Positions 31,601 through 60,196 of a stretch of 64,000 nucleotides of DNA are shown here, piece after piece. Location of the stretch: contig NC_045138.2 of the NCBI RefSeq assembly GCF_008831285.2, positions 35,579,115-35,643,114 on the forward strand. The letters are read 5' to 3'. This stretch comes from Nymphaea colorata (Eukaryota; Streptophyta; Magnoliopsida; Nymphaeales; Nymphaeaceae). The translations under genes were made by a program, and so were the position numbers. Position 1 is the stretch's first letter. Each line of letters starts with the position of its first letter. Below the pieces are notes generated by a model, which was not told the DNA's origin, made no database searches, and was given only the letters and a program-made list of their open reading frames with translations.

Positions 31601-34600
31601 TACATTATTTTAATTGATCAATTAATGGTGAGCAAATTTTGTCTAGTATGGTGTCTCTTTAGATTTTACCTGAAAATTGTGATTTCCAAAATTTTGAGTG
31701 CAGTATGCCTATTGCCTACAAATATTGGTTAGTATCACGAAGCATTTCCACTTTCAATCTTCACACACATAAGAAATTATGAACTCATTCTGACAATTTT
31801 ATTGCAAAGTTGTGTCTCTATAATTTAGCCATCACTTTTTGTGGAACTATGATCTGAAGCACAGACCGAAGAACATTTTCTTGTTTGAGCATGTGGCCCT
31901 TCTATATTTTTGTTCGGTCACATGGCTTTCTAGGGCCCCTTATGTATTGCTGTCTTGTTGAGTATAAAATTGTAATAGTAAAGCATGTTTTACTTTCTTA
32001 TGAGATTGCAGTAAAGCGACAGTCCTATGACATCAAAGGAGGTTTCTGGGTTGCACTGAGATATCGTAGGAGAAAGGAAGGTAGGACCACTTGAAAGAGT
32101 TAAGGTTTCAGTCTGCAGCAAAACAATTAGGCCTCTAAACCTACAGCACTTCAGTGATCATTTACTTGGTTAGAGAAAGAAACAATTTTCTCATGGTATT
32201 GCATGTTAATGATTAATTTTAACGTAGAGCAAACATGAACAATGACAATAATTAAATTTTTTCCCGATGCCTCTTATTCTGCTGGAATATACATCTGCCA
32301 AATTTCACACGTATGTTTTTCACAACCAATATGGAGCTCATTGAGAAAGAATCCAGCCCTTTTGGGTCTTCACTATTTTTTGCATATATTAATCTAAAAT
32401 TCACTGTTATAACCCAGCTTTGATAGGCTTGGTTTCATAGAAAGCGATTTTTTTCTCCATCATACAAATAGGTTTGATTGCAAACTTGACGTAACTTGGA
32501 GATGCTACTGATTTATGCTCTACTGGTGTACAGAGCTGTCTGTTTTTCCTGCTCGATTATCCCATCTTAAGATTCTGTCGTATCTGAAGGTCTTTCTCAA
32601 ATCCACCTAAACCTTAAAGACATGGTAAATTGCAGGATGGTGTTCTTATAGAGAGGAGGTTTCATCAGAGGAAATGGAAGTGGATTATTCATGGACTTCC
32701 TAGAGGCCACAAATTGAGTGCCATAACACCAGCTACATCAAATGACTTGAGCACAAAATTTTTCTCGTTGTTCCTTACTACAACAAGTGGATCCATCTAT
32801 GAATATCGGATCTCAAAAAATTCAGGTGAGCCTTTGAACTTTCCAAGTAAAAAGTGAAACCCACCAAGCTTTTCTTCATCAACATACGTTCTTCATTAAG
32901 GCATATTTTAAAAAAATGGCAAAATTCATTTTATGAAGGTCGAAAGAAACTATTGCAGATACTGGATTGAGCAGAGTGCAATTAGTTTAAATGTTTCTCT
33001 ATGTTCTTGAACAGCAAATGAGCGAAAACAGACCTTGGATAGTTGGATCTGTTGAATAGGAAAACCTCAAAAACCATACTAAAAGAGAATATATTGCAAA
33101 CGGTTGCTATAGAAAGCTAAGAAGCTACATGCAGATTTAATGTCAAATAGAAATAAGAAATCCCTGGAGGAAAAGTCAATAAGGTGTAGGAAGCTATAAC
33201 AAACATGCCTCAGCTATGAGGCCTAAGGTTCCTTGTTAGCTCAAGGAATGCAACACTTTCGATATTTCATGCAGAGTTTGGGGTAGAGTTGATAGCATCG
33301 CTCATTGGTGTGGAGGTCTAAAATATTTAACTTATGTACCCAAGCGAAGGAAAAAGAAAAGGATATTAAAACAGCTGCTAGCTGTTTTGCTAGTTCTCAT
33401 TTGTATATTGTGAAACACGGACACACCTCTGGAAGCTCGAGAACAGAAAGCAAATTATCAGGGATAAGTTATCATCTTAGTAGGTTGTCCTCTTCGTAAA
33501 AGCACGTCAGTATGTGATCCATCGCATATCTCTTTTCAAAAAAATGGCAGTTAATAACTGGTTTCATGGAAATTCTACATAAAAAGGTCAAATGAAGAAA
33601 TAGAAACTTCAGTTGCTACTTCAGATTTACACACATTAACTTGAGTATCACTTTCTTTAGAAAAAAATGTCATGTTCAATTTCTAAAGAGCAAGATGCAC
33701 GTTTGCTTTTTTATAAAATACAGTGGCAAGACAGGGACAGGATAATCCAACCTCGGAAGCATGGATCAATCATATGCACCCACCACATGCAAAGGTCGCC
33801 CGGGGCATTTTAGGACTGCAGCTTCAACCTGGCAGGATGCTGTTTCCACTGGATGATGGCAGGGTCGGAGAGCTCCATTCGTCAGGAATTGGAGGACATA
33901 GTGTAGGGCCAAATAATCATGCTAATGCAAGGAGGAAAACATCATCCAGATATGAATGGAGCATAATAGATGCACCAGAAACTGAAGGATGGAATGCAGA
34001 ATATTGCACAGAAGGACGTGGACCATCAAACTGCATCACTGGGATAAAGGATTTAGTTAATGAACAGGAACTAGATGACCCCGGAAAAATAACCAGAAGA
34101 AGAAAAAATCAGGAGTACCAAAGCTACATAATGCCAATTAAATACACCAACAGCCAACCAGATGTTTCCGACCAGAACAACATTTTGACAAAAAAAATTC
34201 AGCCCATCTTCCGCATGAGATCCATGCACCCGGACAAGTCATTCTTCCTTGTCACAGATAACGGTATAACTTTTGAGTATCTTTATACTGAAGGCATCTG
34301 GTTGTGGCTCAGGCATGAACATCCGACTCCGATGAAAGGTATTTTAGGCATCTATAATGGAAGTTTATTTTTGGTCGATATGCATGGTAGCCTATTGATA
34401 AGAGAAAGAAACAGTAATGGCTTAGCATGGATAAACTGCACTTCCATGAGTAGAGGAAGAAAAGTATCTACAGGCCCCCCTTGGGATGGGGTGCCCGGTA
34501 AAGTTCAGGTGCCTACAACCGAAGATTCATTATTTTTCATCAATAAAAATGGAAGGCTCCTTCAGTTTAAAGTAAGTCAAAATTTCATGTAGCACAAGGA

Positions 34601-36183
34601 TAGATCATTTCAGAGGCTTGAATTTTAGGTGTATGTTTCTGTTCAAGATTGTTGAACAAACGATGGTCTTATCTTCTACAGGTTGCGTTGAGGAAATTTG
34701 TCTGGAAGGACTGTCGAAACCCCCAAAACATCAAAGTCAGTTCTATAGTTGATCAGGAGGGATTAAGATCTAATATTGTATTCGCTGTTGGAAATAATGG
34801 TCGACTTTATCAGTTTAACAAAGTTACTGAATTATGGCACGAGCATGATCAATCACCTCACTTGTCTCTTTCTAGACTACCCGGAACGGTTTTGAGGCCA
34901 TCCAGTTCATCTTTATCTGGTTCTTTGTTCATGCGTTCAGAAGACGGTGGCCTTGTAGAATATCGTTGGAATCCATTAGATGGATGGAACTGGATGGAAC
35001 ATGGGACACCGCATAAGGATGTCATTGTTGCCGCTGCACCAGGCCCTAGCTTTCAAGGGAACCAGTTATTTATCATTGGATCAGATGGTCATGTTTATCT
35101 GAGATACTTAGTAGACAGCGCATGGAGATGGCAAAATTATGGTTTCCCATCCATGGAAAATCTGGAGTCAGAATCTGACGACGTATTAGTGGGAAATTCA
35201 GAGGCTACTGTGGTTAGCAATCAGAATATGATGCACGATTGCAATGATGAAGACAGCAAGTGCAATCCAAAGGTCAGTAGCAAGTATTATTATTGCATGG
35301 TGAAGAGGTCCACGCATGTTGCATTTAACATAAACCAGAAAATTATAATCACCGATTAGGTTCAGACTTTCAGTTATATAAAAGACAAAATCATCCTCTC
35401 CTAGTCTCTGGTTTCGTTTTGAGACATCCTTGCTAGATGATGGCAAAAGATATCTTGGCACCTTGATGACATTTTTGAAACTGGAACCTAGTACCTGAGT
35501 GGTGGAAACAGTTAACTTTGTTAAGCGGAAGACATACTTCAAAATCACATTCCCCTTAGGACTTGAGGAGAAAATCCTGGAAAGGAAATTACAAAATCAG
35601 AGATACAGTGAAGTAAGTGGAAGTCACACACTGCACGCCGGAATCTCGGCAGTTCTGTTTACAACAGAAAGGCCACATCGTTTCTCCTGTACTCGTATTG
35701 ATAAACAATGCACTTAGATTCTTCAGATTGTCAGGAGAGGCCTTGTTCGCCTTGAGCATTGTCTGAGAAATTTTTGTAGGCTAAAAACAGAAAGGAAAAG
35801 CATGTTGGTAAATTTCAAACCGATGCAGTTGCGACTATCGCGGGATTTCAGACTGTCAACTAATTTTTTTATTACTGCAGGTAGCACCAGTTCGGCCGAT
35901 ACCATTTTCTGATGAAGCAGCTATTTTCGAGTTGAGGGATGGCAGAGTGAGTGATGTACTTTCTCAGCAGCGAAAACAATCAGCGACCAACTAAATAACA
36001 GTATCCTTGTGATCTCTTTTATTTCTTGGCTCTACCTATTTGGGGAATTCTTAACCTGAGCTTCTATTGTAACAGTTGGGAGAATTGCGGAGAACGGGTG
36101 AAACGCAGTGGAGCTGGAGCAGGATTATCAACACTCCAAGAAGCCAGTGCCGAGCGGCCTACTTGACGGTTTCAGCATCATAA
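28575..36183 (+). CDS. Secreted beta-propeller protein with ~14 PLL/fucolectin-like repeats
   Basis: Spliced CDS of 935 residues; exons 28575-29126, 30533-30666, 30837-30899, 31055-31144, 31360-31525, 32636-32825, 33724-34571, 34682-35272, 35881-35946, 36076-36183, all in phase. The start MSFCPQAFMWVFLMMYQMPK is hydrophobic and looks like a signal peptide; an in-frame ATG lies nine codons upstream. After a conserved FEEQSNSWKEVQLPFDLYNC block and a charged linker, about fourteen repeats follow. Examples are GSIYERFWNGLQWVITPHDL, GVLIERRFHQRKWKWIIHGL, GLVEYRWNPLDGWNWMEHGT and GHVYLRYLVDSAWRWQNYGF. This G-hydrophobic-(E/Q)-(Y/F) ... W-x-W ... HG-x-P pattern resembles PLL-type and fucose-lectin beta-propellers. 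The family is conserved in plants but, as far as I know, uncharacterised. Glycan binding in the apoplast or secretory system is inference. Confidence 0.85.
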
Positions 36184-37860: not shown

Positions 37861-40800
37861 TCACTGATTCACAGCTTCAACTGAAGCTGGAGACGCTCTG
37901 CTATTTGCATGATCATCAGCAGCACAATTAGTGTAAAGAAAGCGATCTTGTGTAATTTTTGACATGGCGGCGAACTCATTCAGAGAGAAACTTTTACTCC
38001 TAACCAACTTTGCCAGCTCCGGATGCATCTTTAGGGGCCTCTTTCCCTTTTGCAAGTTGTGAAATGCCCTGCAAATTGTTCAGAATGTAGTTATTCAAGT
38101 ACCCTTCGAAAGATAACCAAGCAGTTTCATTATGAAGCCAGGCTAACACCTGAACAGAAAGAAAAGACAGGACCGAAAGAAAAGACGCAGCATGAAGAGA
38201 AAGGGGTGAACAGCTTCCACTTGTACAACCTGCCACAATGGGCACAAACGCTTGTGAACTGATGCTAACCAGAAGACCAAAAACACAAGTCTAAGGCACA
38301 AACCCAATCCATTGGTTGAGGAACCACAAGAAACCAAACAGGAACATTACTGGACAACGGTTTTATTCTTTGAATTTCAACAAGCAACTAAGATAACAAT
38401 GTCATTCGACCAACACATTTGACTCAGAGATGAAGCGGGTCCTAGCAGAGTTCACATGAATAGGTTATGAAGAATTGAAGACTCGGTTCTTACCAACCTC
38501 ATTATGGGCCAGCACCAAGCAAACACCCTATGTGATCAGAAAATAAAGGCATGCATCAACTAGATTAAAAGGACTGAGTTAGTAAATTACCAATACTGTT
38601 CAAGGCCATACAAATTCCCTTTGCTATATAACTCAAGGGTCAGTTGCTCAAAATCATCGTACAAGTCTCCTCTGAACTTCTTCTCCAATCCATCACTGAA
38701 AATGGGCATTCCACCAGTAAAACAGGTCACATTAAGACAACCAAAAAAATTCTCAAGAAAGAGAAGTCGACATCAAAGTACTGTAATTCTCAAATATTGG
38801 ACAAAGTGGATTGCTGATTTCCAGTAGAGAAGCTTTATTGAAGGACCTGAAACAGATTTCATTGAGATCATACTACGAAAGCACTAACCACTGATGAATA
38901 TGGACTTGGAAAAGATGCAAGAATATGGAAAAGGGAGAGAAGGCCTCACATAATCTTCCTATGAGAGGTAGTGGAGCAATGAATTTAAGCTTTTTTTTTT
39001 GGGGAAAAACAAATGAAAACAGAAGGAGAAACTTAATACCTATAAAACTTCAAAAGGCACTCTAATCCATAACTATAATTAGCTGCTGAATCTTCAAGTG
39101 CCAACTTCCGGAAGTCATTGTACATAGAGCGATTAAAATGATATTGCAGAAAAAACGACCAAAATCTGTAGAGGCTGTTCATTTCCTGCGTTACAACTAA
39201 CATGTCAACTTTATGAAATTTCATTGATCCACCAAAATATTCTAAAATATAGTAAGAATGCTAATGCAATCTCTCATAAGTCATATGTTCAACACCAACA
39301 GGGACTAGTAAACATCAAGTAAATAGCAACTCATTCTGGAGTATGAAAAGCTCAAGTGAGAAACAGACAATTTCATTTAACCCAGAGATCAAGCAACACT
39401 GCAGTTATTGGACAACCAGAATCATATTGCAACGTTATTGTATTTTTTTTTTAACATAGCATTGTACCCAAAACTTGCTGTGCCCAAAATTTCACATCCT
39501 CTATGTATCTGTGTTATATATATGTATATATATATATATATATTCATTTCATTGTGTATTTAAGTATTTATTTGTTTATTTATTTCTTTGCATTTACACT
39601 CATATTTAAAATTGACTTCCTTAAAACTCATTAGCACCAGTGGGATTACCTGACAAATTATTACAAGACTTGCACCTTTCCGTATTTATGAAAGAACAAG
39701 ATCCACAACTATTGTTTTGACAAGACAAATCAAAGAATTTAGCATCAAGCCTAATCAAATTGCACGAAAAGGTTAGTAACTGGAAAATATCACTTGCCTT
39801 AATGTCAATTGAGACCTGTACATCTCTCAAACCATTTAAGCACTAAGTTTCATTTCACTACCTCAACTGACCCACTATGAAGTTCTGCATCCTTAGTCAT
39901 GCCACACAGGTACATTGGTGTCATAGATCAGTTTGAGGTCCTATTATGGTCTGTCTCCTTTGATTATTCAATAGTGCATTAAATTTTTCAAATTTTGCGC
40001 CCAAAAAATAGAACATCGAACTCAGTTGTGTAAACATCCAGCTCACCTACATAGCCTGACAACAGTTCAAGAACCCACTAAAAGTTAACCATTTACCCAG
40101 GTCAAGCATGACAAGTTGATAAGATGATGTTACGGTTTTATATTCAGTATTACATAAAATTCACGGTGCAGACTAAGCAGCAAGGATCACAGCCTACTGC
40201 AACTACAGTGTGTGCAAGGAAAACCAAGTCAGGTATCAATCTTCTATAAAAAGGGTTTGGTTGTAGAAACACCATTAACAATAAACATGACCAAGATATG
40301 GCGATGCATCTGACAATGCAAGTGTCAGCTTGTCACCATATAAATGCGAATAGCACATGCATCCTGTTACCATGTTTTGACAATGCATGGGATTTAAACA
40401 CAACAGTAACCTTTATACAATAAGCATAATCAACGAATCTGACCTCACTGCAACCAATCCCCATTCTCTTACGATCATTTAAGGAACACTTGTAGTACTC
40501 CAAATACCTAATCCAAACAACAGACAAGTGCATAAGATAATAACACTGACAAATCTGGAAACCTTCTTCTACTACTGTCTTCTTGTGGAACCAAAGCATA
40601 TCAGTTTGGAACTCAACTTACTTATGTTGCCTGAAACCACTTGCTTCAAGAAGTTGAGAATTTGGATGCTGAAAGAGAGCAAAGGGCTTTCTCATAGATT
40701 CAACGGAAGGGCTGCATCCAGAAATGACGCCAGTTTCAGGATCAGCACCAGGAGAAGCATTTTGTATTGAAAATGTCAAACCAGGTGAAAATTTCTAGCA

Positions 40801-43800
40801 AGTAAAATATTAAAACTAGTCATACTATTGTCACATATATTGTTCTTGGGATTTTGTCATTGAGGTTTTTCTCAGATATTAATCAAGAAGATTGTTTTTC
40901 ATGGAAAATTTTCATAAATTCAAAACTTTAACATACATATAAATGAAAATTACGAAAAGTCGAGTCTTCCATAATTTTCTAAAAAACTTCAACAAAGTTC
41001 AAAATAATTATTAAAATATTGAAAAGGCATCAAGAATTTTAAAATATATTAAAAAACATGTTTTTCTGAAAAAGGGGGGAAAGCAGAAAAATATTATATA
41101 ATGTGATATTTTCATTTTGGTATTTTTTTCAAATATCGTACTTTTCCTGTTTTATTTGTTTTGTGCTATTTTCCCACTTTTGGCATTTATTTGAGAAAAA
41201 CGGTAATATTGTGACAGTGGTTCAAAACTATAAACTAGAAAGACCATAAAACAGTGTTAACTGGAACAAAAAACACTCACCCACAGCTTTCAGGTGGAGT
41301 CATCCCAAAGAAAAATCCCACTAAGTTGCTTGGTGAACTTTCACACAAAAGACCATGTGGACCACAGTCAGAACCGTAACTATTAGAATTAGAAGGAAAT
41401 AGGAGCTGATCATACTGCAAATGGGTATCACACCTATCCTTGTTCCTCCTTTGAGCATTCAAATGGCTATTTTCAATGACATTGATTCCACTGAGAACTG
41501 CATTAGGCCTTGAAGACACTAATCCAGGAACAACGTTACAAGCTTCCAGATCTCTATCTTTGACATCTTCACTAGATATGCAATTTTGAGCACTATGAGC
41601 ACGCTCCTGCATACAACAAGTTCAGCAGATGGATTCTAGATTTATGACACACATAAGCACGCATTCCATATAGACGATAAAACGTCAGAATAAACCACTC
41701 CAATCTGTTCAGCCTCCTATGAGTTGACAGTAGATAGGAAAAAAAACAAGCAGATGCATCTTGAAGGATATTTAAATGTTAATCGCAGGAATAGATGCTA
41801 TTACTCATTTTTTGGCATTTATTTGAGAAAAATGGCAATATTTTGGGAGTGGTTCATGCCTATAAACTAGATAGATCACAATACAGTATTAACTGCAACA
41901 TCAGAAACCAACATTCTGGATGGTAGGCATTAGTAAAACCCTTAATCAGCAGAAAGTCAGAGACACTATAAAAGATACAGATCTTGTCCAAGAAAATGTT
42001 CAAAAAACACAACCATGGTTGCCCTTGTTAATCGATCTAGGACTGAAAACTAGCTGGATAACTGCAAGCAATTTCTTTGTCGGATTTAGTAGAGAATCTA
42101 GGGAAAAATTAGTGAGAAAACTCAAGTGATTACCGTGTCTCCATGGTTTCTATAAGTGTGTGACAATGTCAATAAAGCAGAATCAGCAAAGATCTCTATT
42201 TCCAATAACCAGAATGAATAAGCAATAGAACAATAAAGTAGTTCAGAAACACAATTCAGATAATAATCACTCAAAAACTGGCTTACCAGCAGCAGCAATT
42301 AACTTGCTATTTATCCGTCTATTGCTTTTCTAAAACTCTGCGAAGTCAGATAAATACTAACACCACATGACAGTAGCCAAAATGGAAAATTATGAGATTG
42401 TAGCAAATTAGATGTTAATAAAGGTTTAAGGAATTCTGACATTGAAAATCACTATTTGCATGTTTTCCAGCAGGACTAAACGAAGGTTCAAACTTCAATG
42501 GTCATACCTGAGACACAACTACAAGTTTTTGTATCTCGTGGTCATTGACATCCATATGATCATCGAATTCCTTATTCCTAAAGGAAGAAACAACAAAAAA
42601 TTGTAAATAACTAATATAAACAAGATAATACAATGAATCTTAAAAATATCATCACAGTGGTGCTAACTGTTAAATCACAAATGTGTGTAGCAATTTGTAA
42701 TAACCACAGTATCAGTAAATGTACAACTAGTTTTTCAAGCCAACCTGACTGCAACATAAAGTACCAAATACTGCACTATTCAACATTATTCCTCTCATTC
42801 CAGTGATTTTCAGCCACAAGCAACATACAGTTGCAACTCACAACCTATATGCAGTATGCACTGTATACTAGTCCAGCCAACATCTATTACAACGATGTCC
42901 TTGCTGGTCGATAAAAGTAAGTATCTTTAATAGAAGTATCTCTCACTTTGAAAAAATAATGTTTGGCCATCTACTCATTATCTCTCTTTTAAAAAAATAA
43001 TGTTTAGCCATATACCCATCATGAATCACCTACTTTGGATTTATTGAAGTGCCAGCATGGTGTCAACCAACACATAGTAACACAATTGTATGTCAAAGCT
43101 TGATTGACAAATCTTAATGACTGTGTGCTGTCACCTGCCTTCCCCTTATCCTGTTGCCTAAAAAGACAGAGAAAGAGAACTCACCTACAGAAAAATAAGA
43201 AAAAGTGCATATTAAACATGTATGTCTAGAGCTTGCGATGGCTTGCTTTGAGTGAACCACACTTTATACTGGTAGTTTTCCAGTTAATTATATTGGAAAC
43301 ACTTTTAAGATCCAACTGCCTCATGCAAAGTTGGTCATGAAGATTTTGTGCAACATGTGGTTGCGTTTTAAGGTGCTTAAAATCTCTATACACATCAAAA
43401 CCTTCCCACCGAAGACAAATCTTCAACTATGGAATCACATCTGCAAACCTTGAAGGATATCAATCATACATACACATAAATACAAGAATGTATATATATA
43501 TATACATATATATATATATAGACAAGATTGCTAGTAAATCCAGAAATATAATAATAAATTGTAGGTAGATGTTGGTATATGTGTGAGTTACGTAATGCAG
43601 TGAAACTTGCACATGTATATTATGGAGATGATACATAAGTAATTAAGCACAGGAGCACTTATAACAAACAGTATACAATGTGGATCTGTAGTAAGCAAAT
43701 ATTCTGCTTATCTGCAAGTACATGCAGAGAGACTAGCTCATATGCCCCCCATTGGGCATGAAGGGGTTGCAAATACATTGTACTCGTATAATATGGAGCA

Positions 43801-46800
43801 TTGACCACAACGACATCACAAACTACCAAAACCCGTTGCCATATAAAGTATGGATTTGCAAAATCTTGAAGGCATTTAGACATGTGCATCTGTGTGTGTC
43901 TCTCTCTCTCTCTGTGAGAGAGAGAGAGAGAGGGAGAGACCCAATTGCACTTCCATTGGCAGGACTTCATAAACAAGAAGCAATTTATTCAACAGATTTT
44001 AGCAGACACTTGATGATGCCTTTTTTCCTTTTCCTAAATACAAACTTACCTTCCAGTAGATGAAATATGATCCACTCTATCAGTATACTCTAATGGAAGC
44101 TCTTCATCAAGCAGGGGAGGGCCACAGTCCCCATTAGAAATTGAAGGCGCAGCTACAAAAGCATCACCCGCTGATTCTGGTTGACCCAAGGAATTGACAA
44201 AGCTTTTCTTTGTAGAATAACCAGAAAGAACGCTGTCCTTTGGACGGTCACTCGATTCATCAAAAATCACAACGTCAATGACATTGTTTGCTCCTAAATC
44301 CAATGGTTCACTTGTCAAGTTTTCAATATGTGTCCTTTTTCCAGCTGGCATTACTTTTTCAACCTCATTTTCAGAAGAGCCTGCAGATGCAGTACCAATT
44401 TCAGAGGCATGCTCCAATTGGATGCCTTCTTCTTGAGAACTTATCAAAGTGCCATGATGATTGCAGGAAGGAACAATAATCCCATGATGACATTTTAGAA
44501 CACCTTCAGCCATCTCAAACATGCCATTTGAATCATCAGATGCTGTATAATGTTTTGCAATCTCTTCAATGGCCTCCAGACATTTTTCCGTGCCACTGGA
44601 TGCTCTTCTAATAGTATCATCACCTTGTGAAGCATGTGAAGAGACCAGAAACACATCATCTGGCAAGGGACCAAGAAATTTGTCCCAGTCTTTGCTTTTC
44701 CTCATCATATTCCCCTATCAAGAAGACCAAATTATTCAAGCAGAAGAGAACAGAGAACACGAAAAGTAAAAGGCACCTCAGAAATACAATTTTAACTGCC
44801 AAATAGGCAAATAATCAAAATAAAAGCATCAAAAGTTTTAGATGTCTCACTCGTAATTCAACTTGACTTGAATCCTTGAGTGCATCAATGACTACTTCAA
44901 TATCTTCTGTCATGGCTAGAACCTGAAGCAGATGATAAATTCCAAATAACTAAGTGCTTGATACGTGTAAAAGGTCTATGTTAATGCCCTATCTGATGCT
45001 AACTAAACAAAGATGCTTAAGTAAGCAAAAAAAATGCATATACTATGGGGTTGTGAGTCTGGATTTATTGTGGGCAGAAGGAACATGCAATAGTAAAATA
45101 ATGAGAGACAAACCCGTCTAAAGCCAGCAATTAATTTTATAGAGATCCACCCTTCTTCATCAATTACACTGCGCATAAACCTGTCTTTACACAAATTTTC
45201 CGCACTGAAGAGATAATTCATATTAGTTCACAACTCAGACAGCAGAGACTATCACTCGTAAAGAGAGGTACCCAAAGCACCGGTTCTGGTCTAGCACTTA
45301 AACGTAGTATCATAAAGACTGAGATTTCAGGGAAGAAATTAACCTGAAATAGTATTCTATCTGTTTGACTATCCGAGTTTTCAACTCCTGCAAATCAGTC
45401 GACTGGGAGATAACTTCAGATGCCAAAAGAGATGATTGCGGAGGTGATGAGAAAGGAACTGGCATTTGGGGAGAAGGCAGATTCGGTTGGGCAAAATGGT
45501 GTGCACTGCTAGCATGTTCATAAGGTGGTGGTGCAACATGGAAGATTGAAGCTGCATTGAATGGTCACTGTACCAGATCAGGTAAAGAAGAAAGGAGACA
45601 AAAGCAAAAAATAATTTTATGAAAAGTACTTTGTTAGCATAAAAAAAAATAGTAAACATCACTCCAGGTATACAATAAAAATATAAAACATTAAGGACAG
45701 AAAATGCCTTTACCAGGAGCTGTATTCATAAATGCCTGAGGTGGACCAAAAAAGCGGGGATGCTGACCAGGAAAAGTTGGACCAGCATGCTGTGGCATGT
45801 TACTGGGAATATATGGCCATTGGTGATGCCATGGATGATTATACCGGCCAATAGGCTTCTGAGATAAAAGCTTTCTGTTATAAAAATTGCTCCTGCAAGA
45901 GTTTGAATTACCTCGAATTGGTCTCTGAATGTTACCGTGGATATCAGCACCAATTCCTGCTGCATGTGGATTGAAGGGTCTCATGGGCATACGATATCCA
46001 GGTCTACAAAAGGTAGCATCTGAAGGAAACATCTGACTGGGGTTAGCTGGGAATGTGTAATCTTGAGCTGCTGAATGTGGAGGATACATGGGCATTTGAG
46101 GAAATGGTAGAATATATGAAGGAGAACGATGCATAGGATAAACTGGAGCAATGCCATTTGCAGGATAATACCGCCTTGGACCTGACTTATGGTGCATATG
46201 AGTTTGTCTATGAGAACGTGTAGCATCTCCATGACCATTCAATTTTTGTTCATGAATTGATCCCTGGAAATAATGAGGAAGAGACAGCAACAGCTTTAAA
46301 GTTTAAATAAACTGACAACTCAAGCCAAAAGAAAACAACAATTACAAAAGAACAGCCATGGAACACCTTAGTAACATTTTTCATCTCAAGTGGCTCTCTC
46401 AGATTATACTAATTTGATCACGCATGCAGTGGGAACCAGGTCATAGTAGCTACTATACAAAAGCAGGATAGAGAAGCATGACGATCCGGCTAAAATTAGT
46501 AAACATGCTAGAGTATATTGTAGCAAAAGGCTGCATTGCAATTTTCAACCTAAAGGAGAGAAACAAAATGTAAAGGAATGTGCTTCAAGGCATTCCATAT
46601 CCTATAGATCCAAGCCCTGTGGAACTCAAGTTTGACAGTCACACGATTGCATGTACAAACTCAAGCACGCACACCGATATATATATACACTTAAAGAGAT
46701 CAACCACTCATAGTATATAACCTATTCAAAGCAGATCTCGTCGTTCGTACAAGATGCACAGCGCTACAAAAGCCAGTGCTTGACAAACTTCTTTTTTTGT

Positions 46801-47916
46801 TTTCATGATTGATCTCTATTTGTTCGTGTTTCCCTTCAGAAAATCCTAGCCTACCGTATGAAATTTTGTTTAATTGCAGCATTTTAATCCTATCGAATCC
46901 AACTTTCAGGTAAGAGAAAGAAGGGCAGAAAAGGACGCCTATAAATAATTATGGCATGGAAAATGCACCTAAAAACGCCAAAAAGTGCGCTGATGTGCTC
47001 TCGTCAGTGCAGGTATAAAGAACCCATCGACATATCCTTGTGACGTAGCTTCCAAAACTATATAAAGAAACACCAAGCTTATTTAATTTGTCCGCTCCAG
47101 GTATACCAGTTGCCTATCGGGTTTTACTGTTTCAATGAAATAGATGAGTTACACAATGGAGCTTCCAATTAGTCTGGAGAACGCAAACACTTGAAAAATA
47201 CGAGAACATCGATCCCACCTACTTTCTTTAGATAAATTACGTGTGCTTTTTAATTGCAGGGAAGTACGTTTCTTGCATATGAAATTCTTAACACACTCCA
47301 ACAGCTGCTCCAAAAATCATAGCGCGAGACGTTCTTTATGATCCAGGGCATGAGTTGCTCGCTACAGACCCTGCTTTTCTAACCAGAGAAGCAAAACCAA
47401 AAGAACACGAAAAGCAACAACGTAGATGAAGATACGTTTCTCTACACATTATGTTTCTGAAGATGAAAACTGTAAAGAAATTCTTAAATAAACAAACAAA
47501 CAGGACGAAGAAAGCGTGCACAAGTCAAAAAAACGGATCAAGCCAACCTCCACAGACTGAAACTGCTCTTCTTGCTGCGGTGGCGGTGGCGGAGGCGGAG
47601 GTGCAGGACAAACCTCTCCCCCGCTACCACAATCTGGCCCTGCGTCTGCATGATTCGCGGCGAGCGGAGGCCACGACTCTGCCCCCATTACAGCACAAAC
47701 TACGTTCCCGTTTGTCGCCGGCCTTTTCCACGCGCTCGGCCTCTCGACCTCGCCCTCGCCCTCCGCACGGCCAACGCTATCCACCCGGCTATCTCCACTT
47801 GCGTCGATCCTGACGGAGGCCTCGAACTCCTCTGAGAGGCCGGCCGCATTCGCAGCCTCCGCCGGCGGGTTCAGAGGGCACGAAACCGCAGCAACGGCAA
47901 CGGAGCCGCACTCCAT
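37861..47916 (-). CDS. LARP1: La-related protein 1 (LARP1) with La motif and DM15 region
   Basis: Spliced CDS of about 987 residues; exons 47548-47916, 45714-46263, 45344-45551, 45114-45204, 44851-44922, 44050-44714, 42508-42577, 41281-41606, 40622-40711, 40444-40507, 39040-39185, 38591-38695, 37861-38068. Phases join; the exon 9 start is the weakest call. The N-terminus has PSAWKRP then [10 protein letters not shown], a plant LARP1 hallmark, a Pro8 tract and a Pro/His/Tyr-rich exon 2. The La motif (about 357-432) includes [34 protein letters not shown] and [28 protein letters not shown] precedes the DM15 region (about 797-925): [70 protein letters not shown]1 binds the cap and 5' TOP of translation mRNAs downstream of TOR, and in Arabidopsis aids heat-triggered decay with XRN4. 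Oddity: two expected cap-pocket tyrosines are replaced (Asp885, Leu924). Confidence 0.92.
39516..39542. repeat. (TA)n microsatellite in LARP1 intron 10/11 region
   Basis: An alternating TA run with one G interruption, in the intron between exons 10 and 11. No function visible. Confidence 0.85.
41179..41274 (+). repeat. Direct repeat copy 1, beside LARP1 exon 8 donor
   Basis: Starts TTTGGCATTTATTTGAGAAA, contains CAGTGGTTCA and CTATAAACTAGA, and ends CTGGAACA just 6 bp from the exon 8 boundary. It matches a segment 632 bp away on the other side of the exon. Confidence 0.75.
41811..41908 (+). repeat. Direct repeat copy 2, in LARP1 intron 7
   Basis: Same order of blocks as copy 1: TTTGGCATTTATTTGAGAAA, GAGTGGTTCA, CTATAAACTAGA, then CTGCAACA. 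Differences are scattered substitutions and small indels. Together the two copies bracket exon 8. Confidence 0.75.
42951..43012 (+). repeat. Short tandem duplication in LARP1 intron 6
   Basis: AAAAAATAATGTTT(G/A)GCCATNTAC(T/C)CAT occurs twice about 47 bp apart, separated by a TCTCTCTTTT spacer. Intronic and diverged. Confidence 0.6.
43491..43520. repeat. (TA)n microsatellite in LARP1 intron 6
   Basis: TATATATATA repeats with one C interruption. Intronic. Confidence 0.85.
43899..43931. repeat. Perfect CT/GA inverted repeat (15-bp arms, GTG loop)
   Basis: A (TC)n arm at 43899-43913 is followed by GTG and an (AG)n arm at 43917-43931, exactly complementary. It can fold as a hairpin in DNA or in the pre-mRNA. 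It lies in LARP1 intron 6, about 120 bp from the exon 6 donor at 44050. Confidence 0.85.
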
Positions 47917-50138
47917 TGCCGGAAAAAGCAGGAAACAGACCAGCAGCCGGCTTGAGCCGCGCTACTCTTCCACCCGATCCCTTCTCCTCTCCTCTTCTCC
48001 TCTCCCTCCTACGACTACGAGAAGGCTGGAATGGCAGCGGATAAAAAATCGCTGCTTTTATATTCACGTCCCTACTGAGATTAGGTTTACGATGGAATCA
48101 GCTGATGGATGACCGAAAAACTAAGGGCACAGGGAAGACAAATGTGAGTCTCTTGAAAGCAAGGGCCTCTCGATCTCATCATCCCGCGTGACTGAGGGTT
48201 TTTCCTTGATCCCGCGTGGGCCCTAGCTTGCACTTTGCATATATTAAATATATGCTCTTCGATGAGTCGGCCGGTAGTTTATACAAATCACGCTTTCTTT
48301 TTCTACAAATTTTACGAAGTGAGAAAACATATTTCGTTTTTATCTATCTTTTCTTCAAATAATTGTAAAATAAACTTCATCCGATATGCCTTTTCTCGAT
48401 AAATCTTTGGAATAACTAAATTGAAATAAACCATTTTGATGGCGATGCAATAAAGAATATACGAATTTTAAAAAATGATAACCAAGCATTAGAGAAAATG
48501 CACGTTTTTTACTTGTTTTTTCCATGCCATGAAAATGGTCATTTGTGGAATATAACAGATTGTCTGTTGAGCACCTAACATGATACGATGTGGAACTGGT
48601 GAACACGATGAGTCTGACCCAAACGTATCATTTAAACAAATGGTTTGCTGTAAATATCTGAAATTGTCCCTTTGGTCGGGCAGTGGAACATGGGTTCTAC
48701 TTCTCGTGTTGGCCAGGCCCCACACCAAATCAGGTTGGCCCCAAATTTTAAAATTATTTTTACATATTTTATTTTATTAAATATATATATATATATATAA
48801 ATAATTCAACCAATGCCAACCCCTACTTCAAGTATTTCTTGTACCGTAAAGATTATTAAATACATAAATATTCAACCAGCCACAATTATCTGCTGCATAA
48901 CATTGTAATTTTAATCATTGACGTTTTTTTGTGGTTTATTGAACCATGCATATTTTATTTGCATACATATGTTTTTCCACTCGTATTGTTAAACCTCGTG
49001 CACTTGATGCATTTTCCGTTTTTTGCTGTGTTTTTTTATAATTGGTTATATATTATAGGCCCTTAATGTCATATTGTATGTAGAGTCGAGCTCAATTCGA
49101 ACTCACTTGGTAAAACTCAACTCAAACTAGTTTGACTCTTTAATGAATGAGTTTAGTTAAAGACAAAAAAATGAAACCACTTAATTTAAGGAGTTGAGCT
49201 CCCCTATAATAGTAAAGTCGGTGAAAAGCAAATCCACCTGATCGAAGACACGCATTAGTGGTACTATTTCATTGTCGACAAATATCGTTCACCCGTAAAT
49301 TTTATTTAATAGCATGTGTGTGTGGTGTGCACCGTATACAAAAACCCATCACCCTTAACGGGCTAACGAATGATCGACCAACGCAAGTAACTCATCAAGT
49401 TTTTTCCACAAGACAACGGCAACTCAGCAAAACCGCTGGAAATGCTGCCATTGCATATGAATGCTGTAATTATCATTCTACACGTCTATCCCAAGAGGGA
49501 TGGTTGTATATATAATGATTTTTAATAACAATTTATATATCGACGTGCTATCGAATTTTAAGATATTTTGCACATGATACAACAATAGACGTGTAATTGG
49601 ATGCATAAACAAATTACCCCGCTTCATCATATAAAAATGTATAAGTAGTATATGCAATTGGAACTTTTTTTATATTTAAATTCAATGGCCCATATGATTG
49701 CCATGAAATATAGTTTATAAGTGCTTGTTGTCCCTTTGATACTTTCATAGAGACGGCAGCTTATCACGGTCGCTTCATCATCGAACTGTAGTTCTGTATG
49801 CAAAGACAACCAAAATTTGGTCGGACATAAAGAAGCATTTTTTATTATAAAATTTTAACAGAAAAGCCCAACTTGAAATGATCCGAAAAAAAAAAAAAGC
49901 CGATAGATTTGCCAATCATCACAATGGAAGGAAGGACGAATATGTCATTCGACGATAAAAGCGGGACAAAAAAGTTATTGTTCCAGAAGATTCTGAAGGG
50001 CAAACTAGTCAAATAAAGGGCCATCGAGCCCCAGGGCCGTACCCTCGCCCGCGAGAGAAATCGTAACCCTAATTTCTCTTGCTCTCTCGTCCCTCGCTTT
50101 TCTCCCTCTCTTTCTCTGCCGCATCTCTCTCTCCCGCC
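47917..50138. other. Divergent intergenic region between LARP1 and first UBA2
   Basis: Both genes read away from this stretch. It begins GC-rich by LARP1 (47917-48060) and becomes strongly AT-rich, with a (TA)n run at 48780-48800. No further coding frame is convincing. The last 100 bp are the C/T-rich leader of the UBA2 gene. Confidence 0.5.
50065..50072 (+). promoter_or_regulatory. Telo-box-like AACCCTAA in first UBA2 leader
   Basis: It lies 67 bp before the start codon at the edge of a CT-rich leader, matching the usual placement of telo-boxes in genes of translation and RNA metabolism. The paralogue has a comparable element at a similar distance. Confidence 0.5.
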
Positions 50139-51467
50139 ATGGCCAAGAAGCGAAAGGCAGAACCCAAGCCCGAGCCAGAGCCCGAGGAGCCAACTCCCGT
50201 TGAAGAAGCACCCCCTGCCGATGCCGAGATGGTCGAAAACGCAGGCGCTGGTGACGCGGACACCCAGGGCACCCAGGACAGCGTTGCGGAGGAGGACGGC
50301 GAGGATGAATCCGACGAGGAGGATGGCGAGGAGGCACTCCAGAAGCTCCTGGAGCCCTTCGGCAAGGATCAGCTCGTCGAGCTACTCGTTGAATCGGCCC
50401 TCAAGTACGCCGACGTTCTCGACCGTATAAACGTGGTAGCCGACGTTGATCCCGCCCATAGGAAGATCTTCGTCCATGGCCTCGGCTGGGATACCACCGC
50501 CGAGACCCTGAAGAACGCGTTCAAGAAGTACGGGGAGATCGAGGACTGCAACGCCGTCACCGATAAGATCTCCGGCAAGTCGAAAGGATATGGGTTTATC
50601 CTCTTCAAGCACCGTAGCGGCGCTCGGAAGGCGCTGAAGGAACCGCAGAAGAAGATTGGCAACCGGATGACTGCCTGCCAGCTCGCCTCTGCTGGGCCGG
50701 TGCCGGCGACGCCACCGGTCTCTGAGTACACGCAAAGGAAGATCTATGTTAGCAACGTCTCGGCGGATATCGATCCGCAGAAGCTGCTACAGTTTTTCAA
50801 CAAGTACGGAGAAATCGTAGAGGGACCGCTTGGCTTGGACAAACAGACTGGAAAGCCTAAGGGTTTCACACTTTTCGTTTACAAAACGATCGAGAGCGCT
50901 AAGAAAGCGCTCGAGGACCCGCATAAGAACTTCGAGGGGCATATCCTGCACTGCCAGAAGGCGATCGACGGGCCAAAACCGCCGAAGGTGCATCACCACA
51001 ACCTGCCACCGAGCCATCAAGGTTTTCACAGGAACGAGAGTGCTGGCGGAGGATTTGGTCACGGAATCGGGAATTTGGGAAGCAGTGGTTCTGGTGGTAA
51101 CCCTCTGATGTCTGGTGGGTTGGGGTTTAATCAGGCGGCTGCTGCTCCCGCGACTCTCAATCCAGCACTGGGTCAGGCTTTGACAGCGCTTTTGGCCACC
51201 CAGGGTGCTGGTCTTGGCTTGACGAATGTTCTAGCTTCGTTGAATCCGGCCCTCAACCCGAACCTGTCTTCCGCTGTCAATCAGACTGTCCCGTCTCCAT
51301 TGGCGAGCAGTGCTCCACATGGCGGAGTGGGAGGGTTTGGTAATCAGCCAGGAGGTAATGCTAACCTGTACGGGAATCAGGCTGCTCTACCGTATCAAAA
51401 CTCTGGTGGAAGGTCACAACAAGCTGGAGGCCCTATGGGTGGTGTGCCGCCGTATTTGGGGCATTAG
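50139..51467 (+). CDS. UBA2: UBP1-associated protein 2-type double-RRM protein (copy 1)
   Basis: An intronless CDS of 442 residues. Known: UBA2 proteins are nuclear hnRNP-like RNA-binding proteins linked to UBP1, to binding U-rich 3'-UTRs, and to ABA, wound and senescence responses. Seen: MAKKRKAE start with basic patch in a strong CCGCCATGGC context; acidic N-terminus (to about 65); conserved LLEPFGKDQLVELLVESA helix; RRM1 at about 108-185 with RNP2 KIFVHGL and RNP1 KGYGFILF; RRM2 at about 200-275 with KIYVSNV and KGFTLFVY; then a Gly/Asn/Ala/Gln-rich tail ending GGVPPYLGH. The frame can extend upstream only from a TTG, so the ATG at 50139 is chosen. The stop TAG is followed at once by GTACGA, a probable 3'-UTR splice donor. 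A paralogue lies downstream on the same strand. Confidence 0.95.
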   Translation: MAKKRKAEPKPEPEPEEPTPVEEAPPADAEMVENAGAGDADTQGTQDSVAEEDGEDESDEEDGEEALQKLLEPFGKDQLVELLVESALKYADVLDRINVVADVDPAHRKIFVHGLGWDTTAETLKNAFKKYGEIEDCNAVTDKISGKSKGYGFILFKHRSGARKALKEPQKKIGNRMTACQLASAGPVPATPPVSEYTQRKIYVSNVSADIDPQKLLQFFNKYGEIVEGPLGLDKQTGKPKGFTLFVYKTIESAKKALEDPHKNFEGHILHCQKAIDGPKPPKVHHHNLPPSHQGFHRNESAGGGFGHGIGNLGSSGSGGNPLMSGGLGFNQAAAAPATLNPALGQALTALLATQGAGLGLTNVLASLNPALNPNLSSAVNQTVPSPLASSAPHGGVGGFGNQPGGNANLYGNQAALPYQNSGGRSQQAGGPMGGVPPYLGH

Positions 51468-58642: not shown

Positions 58643-58714
58643 GTTCTGCCCCCACTTTTCTCCTCCTCTTGCTTTTCCTCGGTTCTTTCTGTTCTGTACC
58701 GGCGAGCGGCATCG

Positions 58715-60196
58715 ATGGCGAAGAAGCGAAAGGCTCCTCCAAAGGTTGAACCTCCTCCACCGGAAGAGTCCTCTTCCTCAGAGGAAGAAGAGGAGGAGGA
58801 GGAGGAGGAGGTGGAGGAAGTAGAAGAAGAAGAAGTAGAAGTAGAAGAAGAAGCAGAGGAGGAGGAGGAGGAGGAGGAGGAGGAGGAGGAAGAAGAAGAA
58901 GAAGAAGAAGAAGAAGCAGAGGAAGAAGAAGAAGAGAAAGAGAAAAAAGAACGTGCAAAAGAGGAAGAAGAGGGACGGGAAGAAGACGAAAGCGATGGAG
59001 AGGAGGAGGAGGAGCAAGATGCGGCAGCCTCGAACTCAGGGAAGAAGAATAAAAGAAACAAGCGAAAGGATCTGGTGAGAAAGCTTCTGGAGCCCTTCGG
59101 GAAGGACCAGCTGGTGGACATCCTGATGCAGGCATGTGCGAAGAACCCTAAGATCGTCGACCGCATCAACTCCGTTGCTGACACGGACCCTTCCCAGCGG
59201 AAGATCTTCATCCACGGTCTTGGCTGGGACGCCACCACCGAGCAGGTTCTCTCCGTCTTCAAGAAATTCGGCCCCATCGAGGAGTGCAAACTCGTTACGG
59301 ACCGGGCCACCGGCCGATCCAAGGGCTATGCTTTCCTCATCTACAAGCACCGCGCCGGCGCACAGAAGGCGCTGAAGCAGCCGCAGAAGAAGGTGGGCTC
59401 GCGAATGACCGCATGCCAGCTTGCCTCCGACGGCCCGGTGCCCTCGCAACCTGTGTTCGATGCTTCCGACCGGAAGGTTTTCGTGAGTAATGTGCCGCCG
59501 GAGGTGAACGTCGACAAGCTTCGTATTCTGTTCCAGAAATTTGGAGAGCTTGAGGAAGGGCCGCTGGGGCTGGATCGAGTTACCGGGAGGCCGAGGGGAT
59601 TCGCAATCTTCATCTACAAGACTGTCGATGGCGCAAGGAGGGCGCTGGAGGAGCCGTACAAGCTTCTGGAAGGACACCAGCTTCATTGTCAGAAGGCCGT
59701 TGACGGTTTCAAGCCAGGCGCCGCCAAGGCTGCAACCACACCGCAGGCGGTTGTGCCGATGGTGGGAGCTGCGACGGCTTTGCCACCGAACGACCTCGCT
59801 CTCACTCACACAGGCGGTTCTCTTTTGGGGTTGCCAAATTCCTTGGGTCAAGGGGTTGGTCAGAACATGAATCCGATGCTGACAGGCGCAAGTGCTGCAG
59901 GACTCGGGATTTCTCCGGTGATGAATACTGTGAATCCAACTGGCATCTCTCCTCGGGTCAACCCGGCACTGCCGACTTCGGTTGCGACCGGTGGATCCGC
60001 ATTGGGCGGGCTTTACGGAGCCCAGGCATCGGTTAACAACGCGAGCCCTAATATCATGAGTAGTTATGGTTCGCAAGCAGCTTTTCAGGGGCTCGGTCCT
60101 TACCAGGGTGCTAGTCAGATAGGTCAATCGGCAGCAACTAGGACACAACCTGGTGTGGGATCGTTGGGTGGCTTTTCATCATACCTGGGGCGTTAG
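58715..60196 (+). CDS. UBA2: UBP1-associated protein 2-type double-RRM protein (copy 2, poly-Glu)
   Basis: An intronless CDS of 493 residues, tandem paralogue of the gene at 50139. Same plan: MAKKRKAPPK start, acidic N-terminus, LLEPFGKDQLVDILMQA, RRM1 at about 162-240 (KIFIHGL and KGYAFLIY), RRM2 at about 253-330 (KVFVSNV and RGFAIFIY), then a Gly/Ala/Asn/Ser-rich tail ending SSYLGR. It is 51 residues longer, mostly because of a Glu tract at about 17-101, followed by a basic KKNKRNKRKD patch that copy 1 lacks. RRM cores are well conserved, so both proteins should bind RNA in the nucleus. The tails are much more diverged, including loss of the HHHNLPP linker seen in copy 1. The stop TAG is again followed by GTAC. 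Confidence 0.95.
   Translation: MAKKRKAPPKVEPPPPEESSSSEEEEEEEEEEVEEVEEEEVEVEEEAEEEEEEEEEEEEEEEEEEEEAEEEEEEKEKKERAKEEEEGREEDESDGEEEEEQDAAASNSGKKNKRNKRKDLVRKLLEPFGKDQLVDILMQACAKNPKIVDRINSVADTDPSQRKIFIHGLGWDATTEQVLSVFKKFGPIEECKLVTDRATGRSKGYAFLIYKHRAGAQKALKQPQKKVGSRMTACQLASDGPVPSQPVFDASDRKVFVSNVPPEVNVDKLRILFQKFGELEEGPLGLDRVTGRPRGFAIFIYKTVDGARRALEEPYKLLEGHQLHCQKAVDGFKPGAAKAATTPQAVVPMVGAATALPPNDLALTHTGGSLLGLPNSLGQGVGQNMNPMLTGASAAGLGISPVMNTVNPTGISPRVNPALPTSVATGGSALGGLYGAQASVNNASPNIMSSYGSQAAFQGLGPYQGASQIGQSAATRTQPGVGSLGGFSSYLGR
58763..59017 (+). repeat. GAG/GAA trinucleotide repeat encoding a long Glu tract
   Basis: Within the copy 2 CDS, GAG and GAA codons run nearly unbroken across about 85 codons, with occasional Val, Ala, Lys and Arg. 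Pure GAG blocks (near 58785-58805 and 58857-58890) alternate with pure GAA blocks, the pattern left by repeat slippage. The purine-only coding strand may form triplex DNA. Confidence 0.95.

What the first reader, a model, noticed from the sequence alone, without database searches (positions are those of the whole stretch)
37861..38695. LARP1 DM15 cap pocket has Asp and Leu in place of both cap-stacking tyrosines
From memory of human LARP1, the DM15 region holds the m7G cap with Tyr883 and Tyr922, helped by Arg840, Phe844, Arg879 and Lys924. Aligning the spliced window protein without gaps puts Arg842 on Arg840, Phe846 on Phe844, Lys881 on Arg879, Asp885 on Tyr883, Leu924 on Tyr922 and Lys926 on Lys924. 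The spacing of 39 residues between the two tyrosine positions is the same. Asp885 is codon GAT at 38692-38694, just after an exon junction; Leu924 is TTG at 38053-38055. Typical plant LARP1 has SYGLEKKF and AFHHY here. The fold motifs are otherwise kept. This suggests a LARP1 that keeps the DM15 scaffold but has lost or changed cap recognition.
Basis: partly seen in the sequence, partly recalled or inferred. Interest (0 to 1): 0.75.

Follow-up and report, generated by a model that had tools for sequence, protein, structure and literature searches.

The report
Water-lily LARP1 copy without cap pocket
One of two copies of the LARP1 gene in what is probably a water-lily genome seems to have lost the pocket that grips the cap at the start of messenger RNAs and a piece that in humans lies in the ribosome's RNA channel, while its core domains stayed under selection, so the pair may be a natural separation of LARP1's jobs.

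Summary
The spliced minus-strand gene (987 aa, 13 exons) is a LARP1 with a La motif and a full DM15 region. Without gaps, Asp885 stands on human Tyr883 and Leu924 on Tyr922. His800 and Arg847 are also lost (Ser, Gln) and Arg879 is Lys; Arg840, Phe844, Ser882, Glu886 and Lys924 are kept. A search of the genome (probably Nymphaea colorata) found one other DM15 gene, on contig C9: a paralog with an intact pocket, one clear collinear neighbour gene and dS about 1.0, near the published water-lily genome-duplication peak. DM15 dN/dS between the copies is 0.16, without stops or indels, so the scaffold was constrained. Of 8 RNA contacts invariant in three animals and C9, 5 changed, against 7 of 62 other invariant sites (P = 0.003; 0.037 without the two tyrosines). 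The window copy also lacks the exon matching most of one human 40S-binding segment. Five poly(A) residues are kept, as is Arg840, needed for RAPTOR binding in human LARP1. Best reading: a cap-blind LARP1 retained for poly(A)-tail and possibly TOR-docking roles. Main caveats: no RNA evidence; the DM15 frame needs a non-ancestral exon-9 acceptor or exon skipping; recent decay is not excluded. Ascomycota give a precedent for DM15 losing RNA contacts.

The parts
37861..47916 (-). LARP1-C1 gene, ATG to stop, 13 exons: 47916-47548, 46263-45714, 45551-45344, 45204-45114, 44922-44851, 44714-44050, 42577-42508, 41606-41281, 40711-40622, 40507-40444, 39185-39040, 38695-38591, 38068-37861
   Evidence: model; Pfam La 3.5e-23, LARP1_HEAT 4.4e-53; alignment with C9 paralog
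44872..45372 (-). La motif (residues 367-423, exons 3-5); equivalents of Q333, Y336, N342, D346, F348 kept
   Evidence: residues from passages of PMC9458460
41607..42507 (-). intron 7, where the C9 paralog has an extra exon (..IASELVTTINDGLYFYEQ); no coding copy found here; a degenerate relic near 42340-42285 is possible by eye but not demonstrated
40622..40711 (-). exon 9 (start of DM15; H800 equivalent is Ser802); its acceptor lies inside the exon of the C9 paralog
39040..39185 (-). exon 11: DM15; Arg842, Phe846, Gln849, Lys881
38591..38695 (-). exon 12: DM15; Asp885 (GAT 38694-38692) on Tyr883; Glu888 on Glu886
37861..38068 (-). exon 13: Leu924 (TTG 38055-38053) on Tyr922, Lys926 on Lys924; divergent C-tail
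50073..51467 (+). two-RRM protein gene next to LARP1-C1; a homolog lies in the same relative orientation on the same side of the C9 LARP1, about 65 kb away

Best explanation
The window gene is one of two LARP1 copies left by an old duplication, most likely the water-lily whole-genome duplication. The C9 copy keeps the cap/TOP pocket and the 40S-segment exon and presumably does the classical job. The window copy has lost cap and TOP reading (shown: residue changes; inferred: loss of binding) and most of one 40S-binding segment (shown: exon not found; inferred: function). It keeps the La motif with the five poly(A) residues checked, and a DM15 scaffold under purifying selection that includes Arg840. 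Proposed mechanism, inferred: it binds poly(A) tails through the La motif and docks the TOR complex or another protein partner with the HEAT-like DM15 solenoid. It could then protect or regulate mRNAs without blocking eIF4F at TOP caps, and may compete with the C9 copy for tails or TOR.
For: Both stacking tyrosines and 3 more of 9 contacts changed while C9 keeps them. Of 70 sites invariant in human, zebrafish, fly and C9, 12 changed in the window copy: 5 of the 8 contacts and 7 of the other 62 (P = 0.0028; 0.0056 if the kept K924 is added to the list). DM15 dN/dS 0.163, bootstrap 0.087-0.282; 0.148 without contacts; La motif 0.110. A neutral branch of 0.44 substitutions per site left no stop in 0.25% of 2000 simulations and 75% identity in none. 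DM15 found in two places only (9 candidates, 9 scored; the tool calls such counts lower bounds). One clear collinear neighbour gene and one weak one, and dS 1.02, near the published Ks peak of about 0.9 (PMC7015852 passages). Exon matching about human 649-688 not found; the human ribosome-binding region is 660-724, first segment 660-694 (PMC11649897 passages). Poly(A) residues kept. In human LARP1, R840 and not Y883 was needed for RAPTOR binding (section 25 of PMC8034618); the window copy has R840 and not Y883.
Against: No transcript, protein or binding data. The DM15 frame needs a non-ancestral exon-9 acceptor or exon skipping. The copy changes faster at conserved sites (12 against 3 in C9, binomial P = 0.035) and its C-tail (43 codons) has dN/dS 1.08. 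Recent neutrality is not excluded: a neutral branch of 0.1 left no stop in 11% and 75% identity in 94% of 2000 simulations. R840 is also kept in human LARP2, which does not bind mTORC1. In human cells a LARP1 with a mutated ribosome-binding region still repressed TOP reporters and supported TOP levels, so the weight of the lost exon is uncertain. Without the two tyrosines that prompted the finding the concentration test is P = 0.037, or 0.060 with K924 added. Pairwise dN/dS cannot be divided between the branches. Synteny support is modest.
Confidence: 0.5

Rival explanations
1. A duplicate on its way out: constraint held for most of its history and was relaxed recently, RNA contacts and linker exons being among the first things lost; no new role.
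For: Missing exon, altered exon-9 acceptor, faster change at conserved sites (12 against 3), C-tail dN/dS 1.08, linker dN/dS 0.40-0.48. A short neutral branch (0.1) is compatible with the open frame and the identity.
Against: 987-codon frame open with GT..AG junctions. DM15 and La motif dN/dS 0.16 and 0.11. Changes at invariant sites concentrate on contacts. A neutral branch of 0.2 gave at least 75% identity in only 0.3% of 2000 simulations.
Confidence: 0.27
2. The mature protein lacks DM15 altogether: because the ancestral exon-9 acceptor is gone, splicing uses an upstream AG and stops before DM15, leaving a La-motif-only protein.
For: The window copy has no AG at the place of the C9 acceptor (the alignment is weak there). 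The nearest upstream AG, giving an exon start at 40794, leads to a stop at residue 790; all 17 upstream AGs tested lead to stops, among them a polypyrimidine-rich site at 41065.
Against: Acceptors giving exon starts at 40711, 40690, 40639 and 40630, and skipping of exon 9, all keep the DM15 frame. DM15 exons are under purifying selection without stops or indels.
Confidence: 0.12
3. The pocket has changed specificity rather than being lost: Glu886, Ser882, Arg840 and Phe844 still hold a nucleotide or another ligand, with Asp and Leu in place of the tyrosines.
For: The guanine-recognising S882 and E886 and the backbone-guiding R840 are kept.
Against: Both aromatic stackers, R847 and H800 are gone; in human DM15 the single mutants lost affinity 124-fold (Y922) and over about 950-fold (Y883). 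Net charge of the 130-residue core (K, R, D, E counted) is -1 against +5 in C9.
Confidence: 0.08
4. Assembly or splice-model artefact.
For: No read data; the model was chosen to stay in frame.
Against: Three of the five contact changes are multi-base and the five are spread over four exons; exons 10, 11 and 12 equal those of the paralog in length and phase.
Confidence: 0.03

Closest known systems
C9 LARP1 of the same genome (C9:10320686-10343636)
   Same: Same exon order, La motif, DM15; 54.6% identical over 973 aligned residues
   Different: C9 keeps H800, R840, R847, R879, S882, Y883, E886, Y922 (F844 is Tyr), has the 40S-segment exon and a longer exon 9
Human LARP1 DM15 (PDB 4ZC4, 5V4R, 5V87 and others)
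   Same: DM15 alignment ungapped over the pocket, E 2.6e-47; R840, F844, S882, E886, K924 equal
   Different: Y883 to Asp, Y922 to Leu, H800 to Ser, R847 to Gln, R879 to Lys
Ascomycota LARP1 DM15
   Same: Described as possibly no longer RNA-binding, R840 and Y883 not being conserved, while the fold is predicted to persist (Lahr 2015, PMC4652764, passages)
   Different: There the C repeat, and to some extent A and B, drifted and R840 is not conserved; here all three repeats stay close to consensus (PF21071 profile 1-143 of 149), R840 is kept and an intact copy lies in the same genome
Human LARP1 Y883A and R840E laboratory mutants
   Same: Y883 changed with R840 kept: RAPTOR binding unaffected (section 25 of PMC8034618), capped-TOP affinity lost
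   Different: Natural, with four further contact changes and a missing exon

Membership tests
LARP1 (by descent and domains) | La motif | tested here: met
   PF05383 E 3.5e-23, 81.7 bits against cut-off 37.1
LARP1 (by descent and domains) | C-terminal DM15 / LARP1_HEAT region with repeats A to C | tested here: met
   PF21071 E 4.4e-53, 179.8 bits against 27, profile 1-143 of 149
LARP1 (by descent and domains) | Poly(A) residues of the La motif (Q333, Y336, N342, D346, F348) | tested here: met
   alignment, numbering placed by spacing; residue list from passages
Cap/TOP-binding DM15 proteins | Two stacking tyrosines 883 and 922 | tested here: not met
   Asp885 and Leu924
Cap/TOP-binding DM15 proteins | C1/backbone contacts H800, R840, R847, R879 | tested here: not met
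   Ser, Arg, Gln, Lys: one identical, one conservative, two lost
Cap/TOP-binding DM15 proteins | Guanine recognition by S882 and E886 | tested here: met
Cap/TOP-binding DM15 proteins | Measured binding of m7G cap or TOP RNA | not testable with these tools
   needs protein
40S-binding LARP1 | Ribosome-binding segment 660-694 (human long-isoform numbering) | tested here: not met
   exon matching about human 649-688 present in C9, not found in the window
TOR-regulated LARP1 | RAPTOR binding and phosphorylation | not testable with these tools
   only R840 retention seen

The most novel reading that the evidence does not exclude
Water lilies divided LARP1 in two after their genome duplication: one copy reads caps and holds 40S subunits, while the other is a natural cap-blind, ribosome-blind LARP1 whose DM15 solenoid has returned to being a protein dock, held by TOR through Arg840, and which guards poly(A) tails or acts as a natural antagonist of the TOP-repressing copy.
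Probability: 0.25. Interest if true: 0.75.

Novelty: new variant of a known kind. Interest (0 to 1): 0.58.

Why it matters
Whether LARP1 represses or activates TOP mRNAs is disputed (abstract start of PMC7928164 in the listing), and the mechanistic evidence read here comes from engineered mutants. A natural pair in one genome, one copy complete and the other without the cap pocket and most of one 40S segment but with poly(A) residues and scaffold kept, would let evolution separate those activities. It also asks what selects for the DM15 fold when it cannot read caps.

Tried and rejected
Splice choices: the first script stopped with an error and two models lost frame because of wrong exon-3, exon-9 and exon-10 junctions; mended with the GCAG acceptor before 45551 (the same site exists in C9) and the GTAAGT donor after 40622. 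Exon 9: 24 AG acceptors were tested with the exon-8 donor; 4 keep DM15 (exon starts 40711, 40690, 40639, 40630) and 20 stop, all 17 upstream of 40711 among them; skipping exon 9 keeps frame. Other donors were not tested. A relic of the missing exon in intron 7 looked possible by eye (IAS*L), but blastn gave only chance-level matches and tblastn of the exon peptide against the whole window none below E 0.43, that one lying elsewhere (output cut, exon peptide shown down to E 430). PAM2-like motifs: simple patterns matched neither copy, uninformative. Rfam: 0 matches at gathering scores in the window. Synteny: 473 window ORFs of at least 50 aa against 219,700 bases around the C9 gene gave 33 hits at E 1e-6; outside LARP1 they fall on the two-RRM gene, one weak match (53371, 53 aa, 47%) and one match inside the C9 LARP1 gene (61860) that does not fit collinearity; no other window ORF matched. 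The 12 La-motif matches of the genome were not examined beyond the list. Structure prediction was not attempted, because the protein is spliced and does not occur letter for letter in the DNA. Print searches: LARP1 with Nymphaea colorata gave 0 papers; terms on DM15, duplication and lost cap-binding residues (at least 4 of 5) gave 2 papers whose listing shows other topics; LARP1B with DM15 and paralog gave 5, seen as a listing only. No report of this was found by these searches in that library.

Full report
What is there. The window lies in a 407.8 Mb genome of 783 contigs, at C1:35579115-35643114. By size it is most likely Nymphaea colorata (published assembly 409 Mb, 804 scaffolds, 14 pseudo-chromosomes; passages of PMC7015852); the name is an inference. 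The minus strand from 47916 to 37861 holds a LARP1 gene. Thirteen exons with GT..AG introns and matching phases give 987 aa, with Pfam La (E 3.5e-23) and LARP1_HEAT (E 4.4e-53; profile 1-143 of 149).

The pocket. phmmer against PDB sequences finds 5 distinct sequences at E 0.001 or better, all named LARP1; from section 16 of PMC11349179 8DHU is fly, 8DIO zebrafish and 5V87 human. There is no gap across the pocket. Contacts as listed in the human structure paper (passages of PMC5419741) compare, human to window, as H800 to S802, R840 to R842, F844 to F846, R847 to Q849, R879 to K881, S882 to S884, Y883 to D885, E886 to E888, Y922 to L924; K924, taken from the finding, is K926. Five of nine are changed, both stacking tyrosines among them; R879 to Lys is conservative. 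Outside that list K915, which with Y911 holds a sulfate in the apo crystal (passage of PMC4652764), is Gln. In human DM15, mutation of Y883, Y922 or E886 lowered capped-TOP affinity more than about 950-, 124- and 380-fold.

The second gene. A search of the whole genome with PF21071 gives four exon matches in two places, the window and C9:10341870-10342316 (9 candidates, 9 scored; the tool calls counts lower bounds). I read the C9 gene as 14 exons, C9:10320686-10343636, 1065 aa. It keeps every listed contact except that F844 is Tyr. Synteny is modest. A two-RRM gene (window 50073 on +; C9 10255473 on -) and a weak 53-aa match (53371 on +; 10245421 on -) lie on the same side of LARP1 in the same relative orientation. 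One further match (61860) falls inside the C9 LARP1 gene and does not fit; no other of 473 window ORFs matched in 219,700 bases. Nei-Gojobori dS over 973 codons is 1.02, and the published water-lily duplication peak is at Ks about 0.9. The pair is therefore probably, not certainly, a whole-genome-duplication pair.

Selection. DM15 (148 codons) has dS 0.88, dN 0.144, dN/dS 0.163 (bootstrap 0.087-0.282, 1000 resamples; 0.148 without the nine contacts). The La motif has 0.110, the N-terminal part 0.27, linkers 0.40-0.48, the C-tail (43 codons) 1.08. DM15 has no stop and no indel against C9. In 2000 simulations per distance, a fully neutral branch of 0.44 leaves no stop in 0.25% and 75% identity in none; at 0.2 the figures are 2.5% and 0.3%, at 0.1 they are 11% and 94%. 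So the scaffold was under constraint for most of its separate history, but a recent relaxation is not excluded, and pairwise dN/dS cannot be divided between the copies.

Concentration. Of 130 ungapped positions, 70 are invariant in human, zebrafish, fly and C9. The window copy changes 12: 5 of the 8 contacts (F844 drops out because C9 has Tyr) and 7 of 62 others; hypergeometric P = 0.0028, 0.0056 with K924 added and 0.0011 with K924 and K915 added. Leaving out the two tyrosines that prompted the finding: 3 of 6 against 7 of 62, P = 0.037, or 0.060 with K924. Conversely C9 changes 3 of 61 positions invariant in the animals and the window copy, so the window copy is the faster one (12 against 3, P = 0.035). 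Net charge of the 130 residues is -1 against +5 in C9.

More is missing. C9 has an exon (10338963-10339067) encoding SFKTGEG...IASELVTTINDGLYFYEQ. With its neighbours it aligns to human LARP1 628-697 (domain i-E 3e-4), the exon itself to about 649-688. Human residues 660-724 are the ribosome-binding region seen in the 40S mRNA channel, first segment 660-694, with H665 at the decoding centre (passages of PMC11649897); the numbering check puts His at 665. I found no such exon in the window gene. In human cells a LARP1 with a mutated ribosome-binding region repressed TOP reporters as well or better and showed no clear difference in TOP levels, so this loss need not matter much. Exon 9 of the window gene starts inside the exon of C9: there is no AG at the aligned place of the C9 acceptor, and the nearest upstream AG leads to a stop.

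What is kept. The five La-motif residues that the poly(A) structure paper names (passages of PMC9458460) are identical (numbering placed by spacing). Arg840 is kept. In human LARP1, R840E but not Y883A reduced RAPTOR binding, and RAPTOR binds mainly, though weakly in isolated fragments, to the C-terminal region with DM15; LARP2 keeps R840 yet does not bind mTORC1 (section 25 of PMC8034618). In Arabidopsis, LARP1 mediates TOR control of TOP mRNAs (passages of PMC7584452).

How it probably works. Shown: residues changed, exon not found, fold constrained, intact second copy. Inferred: no cap or TOP binding, weak or no 40S binding, poly(A)-tail binding through the La motif, and a protein-docking role for the DM15 solenoid, perhaps for TOR. 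Rivals are recent decay, a DM15-less product through exon-9 splicing, and a changed ligand.

Known or new. As a gene it is a LARP1 by its two defining domains; as a cap-binding DM15 protein it fails the test. Loss of DM15 RNA contacts has been proposed for Ascomycota LARP1 (passages of PMC4652764). The combination here (constrained scaffold, contact loss with R840 kept, missing 40S exon, intact sister copy in the same genome) was not found in print by the searches. I class it as a new variant of a known kind.

Noticed in passing
50073-51467 and 58643-60196 (+): Two neighbouring genes for two-RRM proteins (UBA2-like by recall) with similar layout, apparently a tandem duplicate; both match one place on C9 near 10255473.
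   Followed up: partly
292-1635 (-): Open frame of 447 aa for a plant organelle RNA recognition (PORR) protein, Pfam E 4.3e-112.
   Followed up: no
33717-35359 (+): Two long adjacent frames (291 and 245 aa) on the downstream side of LARP1-C1 that by eye look like parts of one repeat (propeller-like) protein; no Pfam match at 0.001.
   Followed up: no
41065 (-): Polypyrimidine-rich acceptor (ctttcccccctttttcag) inside intron 8 of LARP1-C1 that would stop the protein before DM15.
   Followed up: partly
L010 (G000:C614:36824-37021): La-motif match with three in-frame stops in the same genome, perhaps a pseudogene or a match running across an intron.
   Followed up: no
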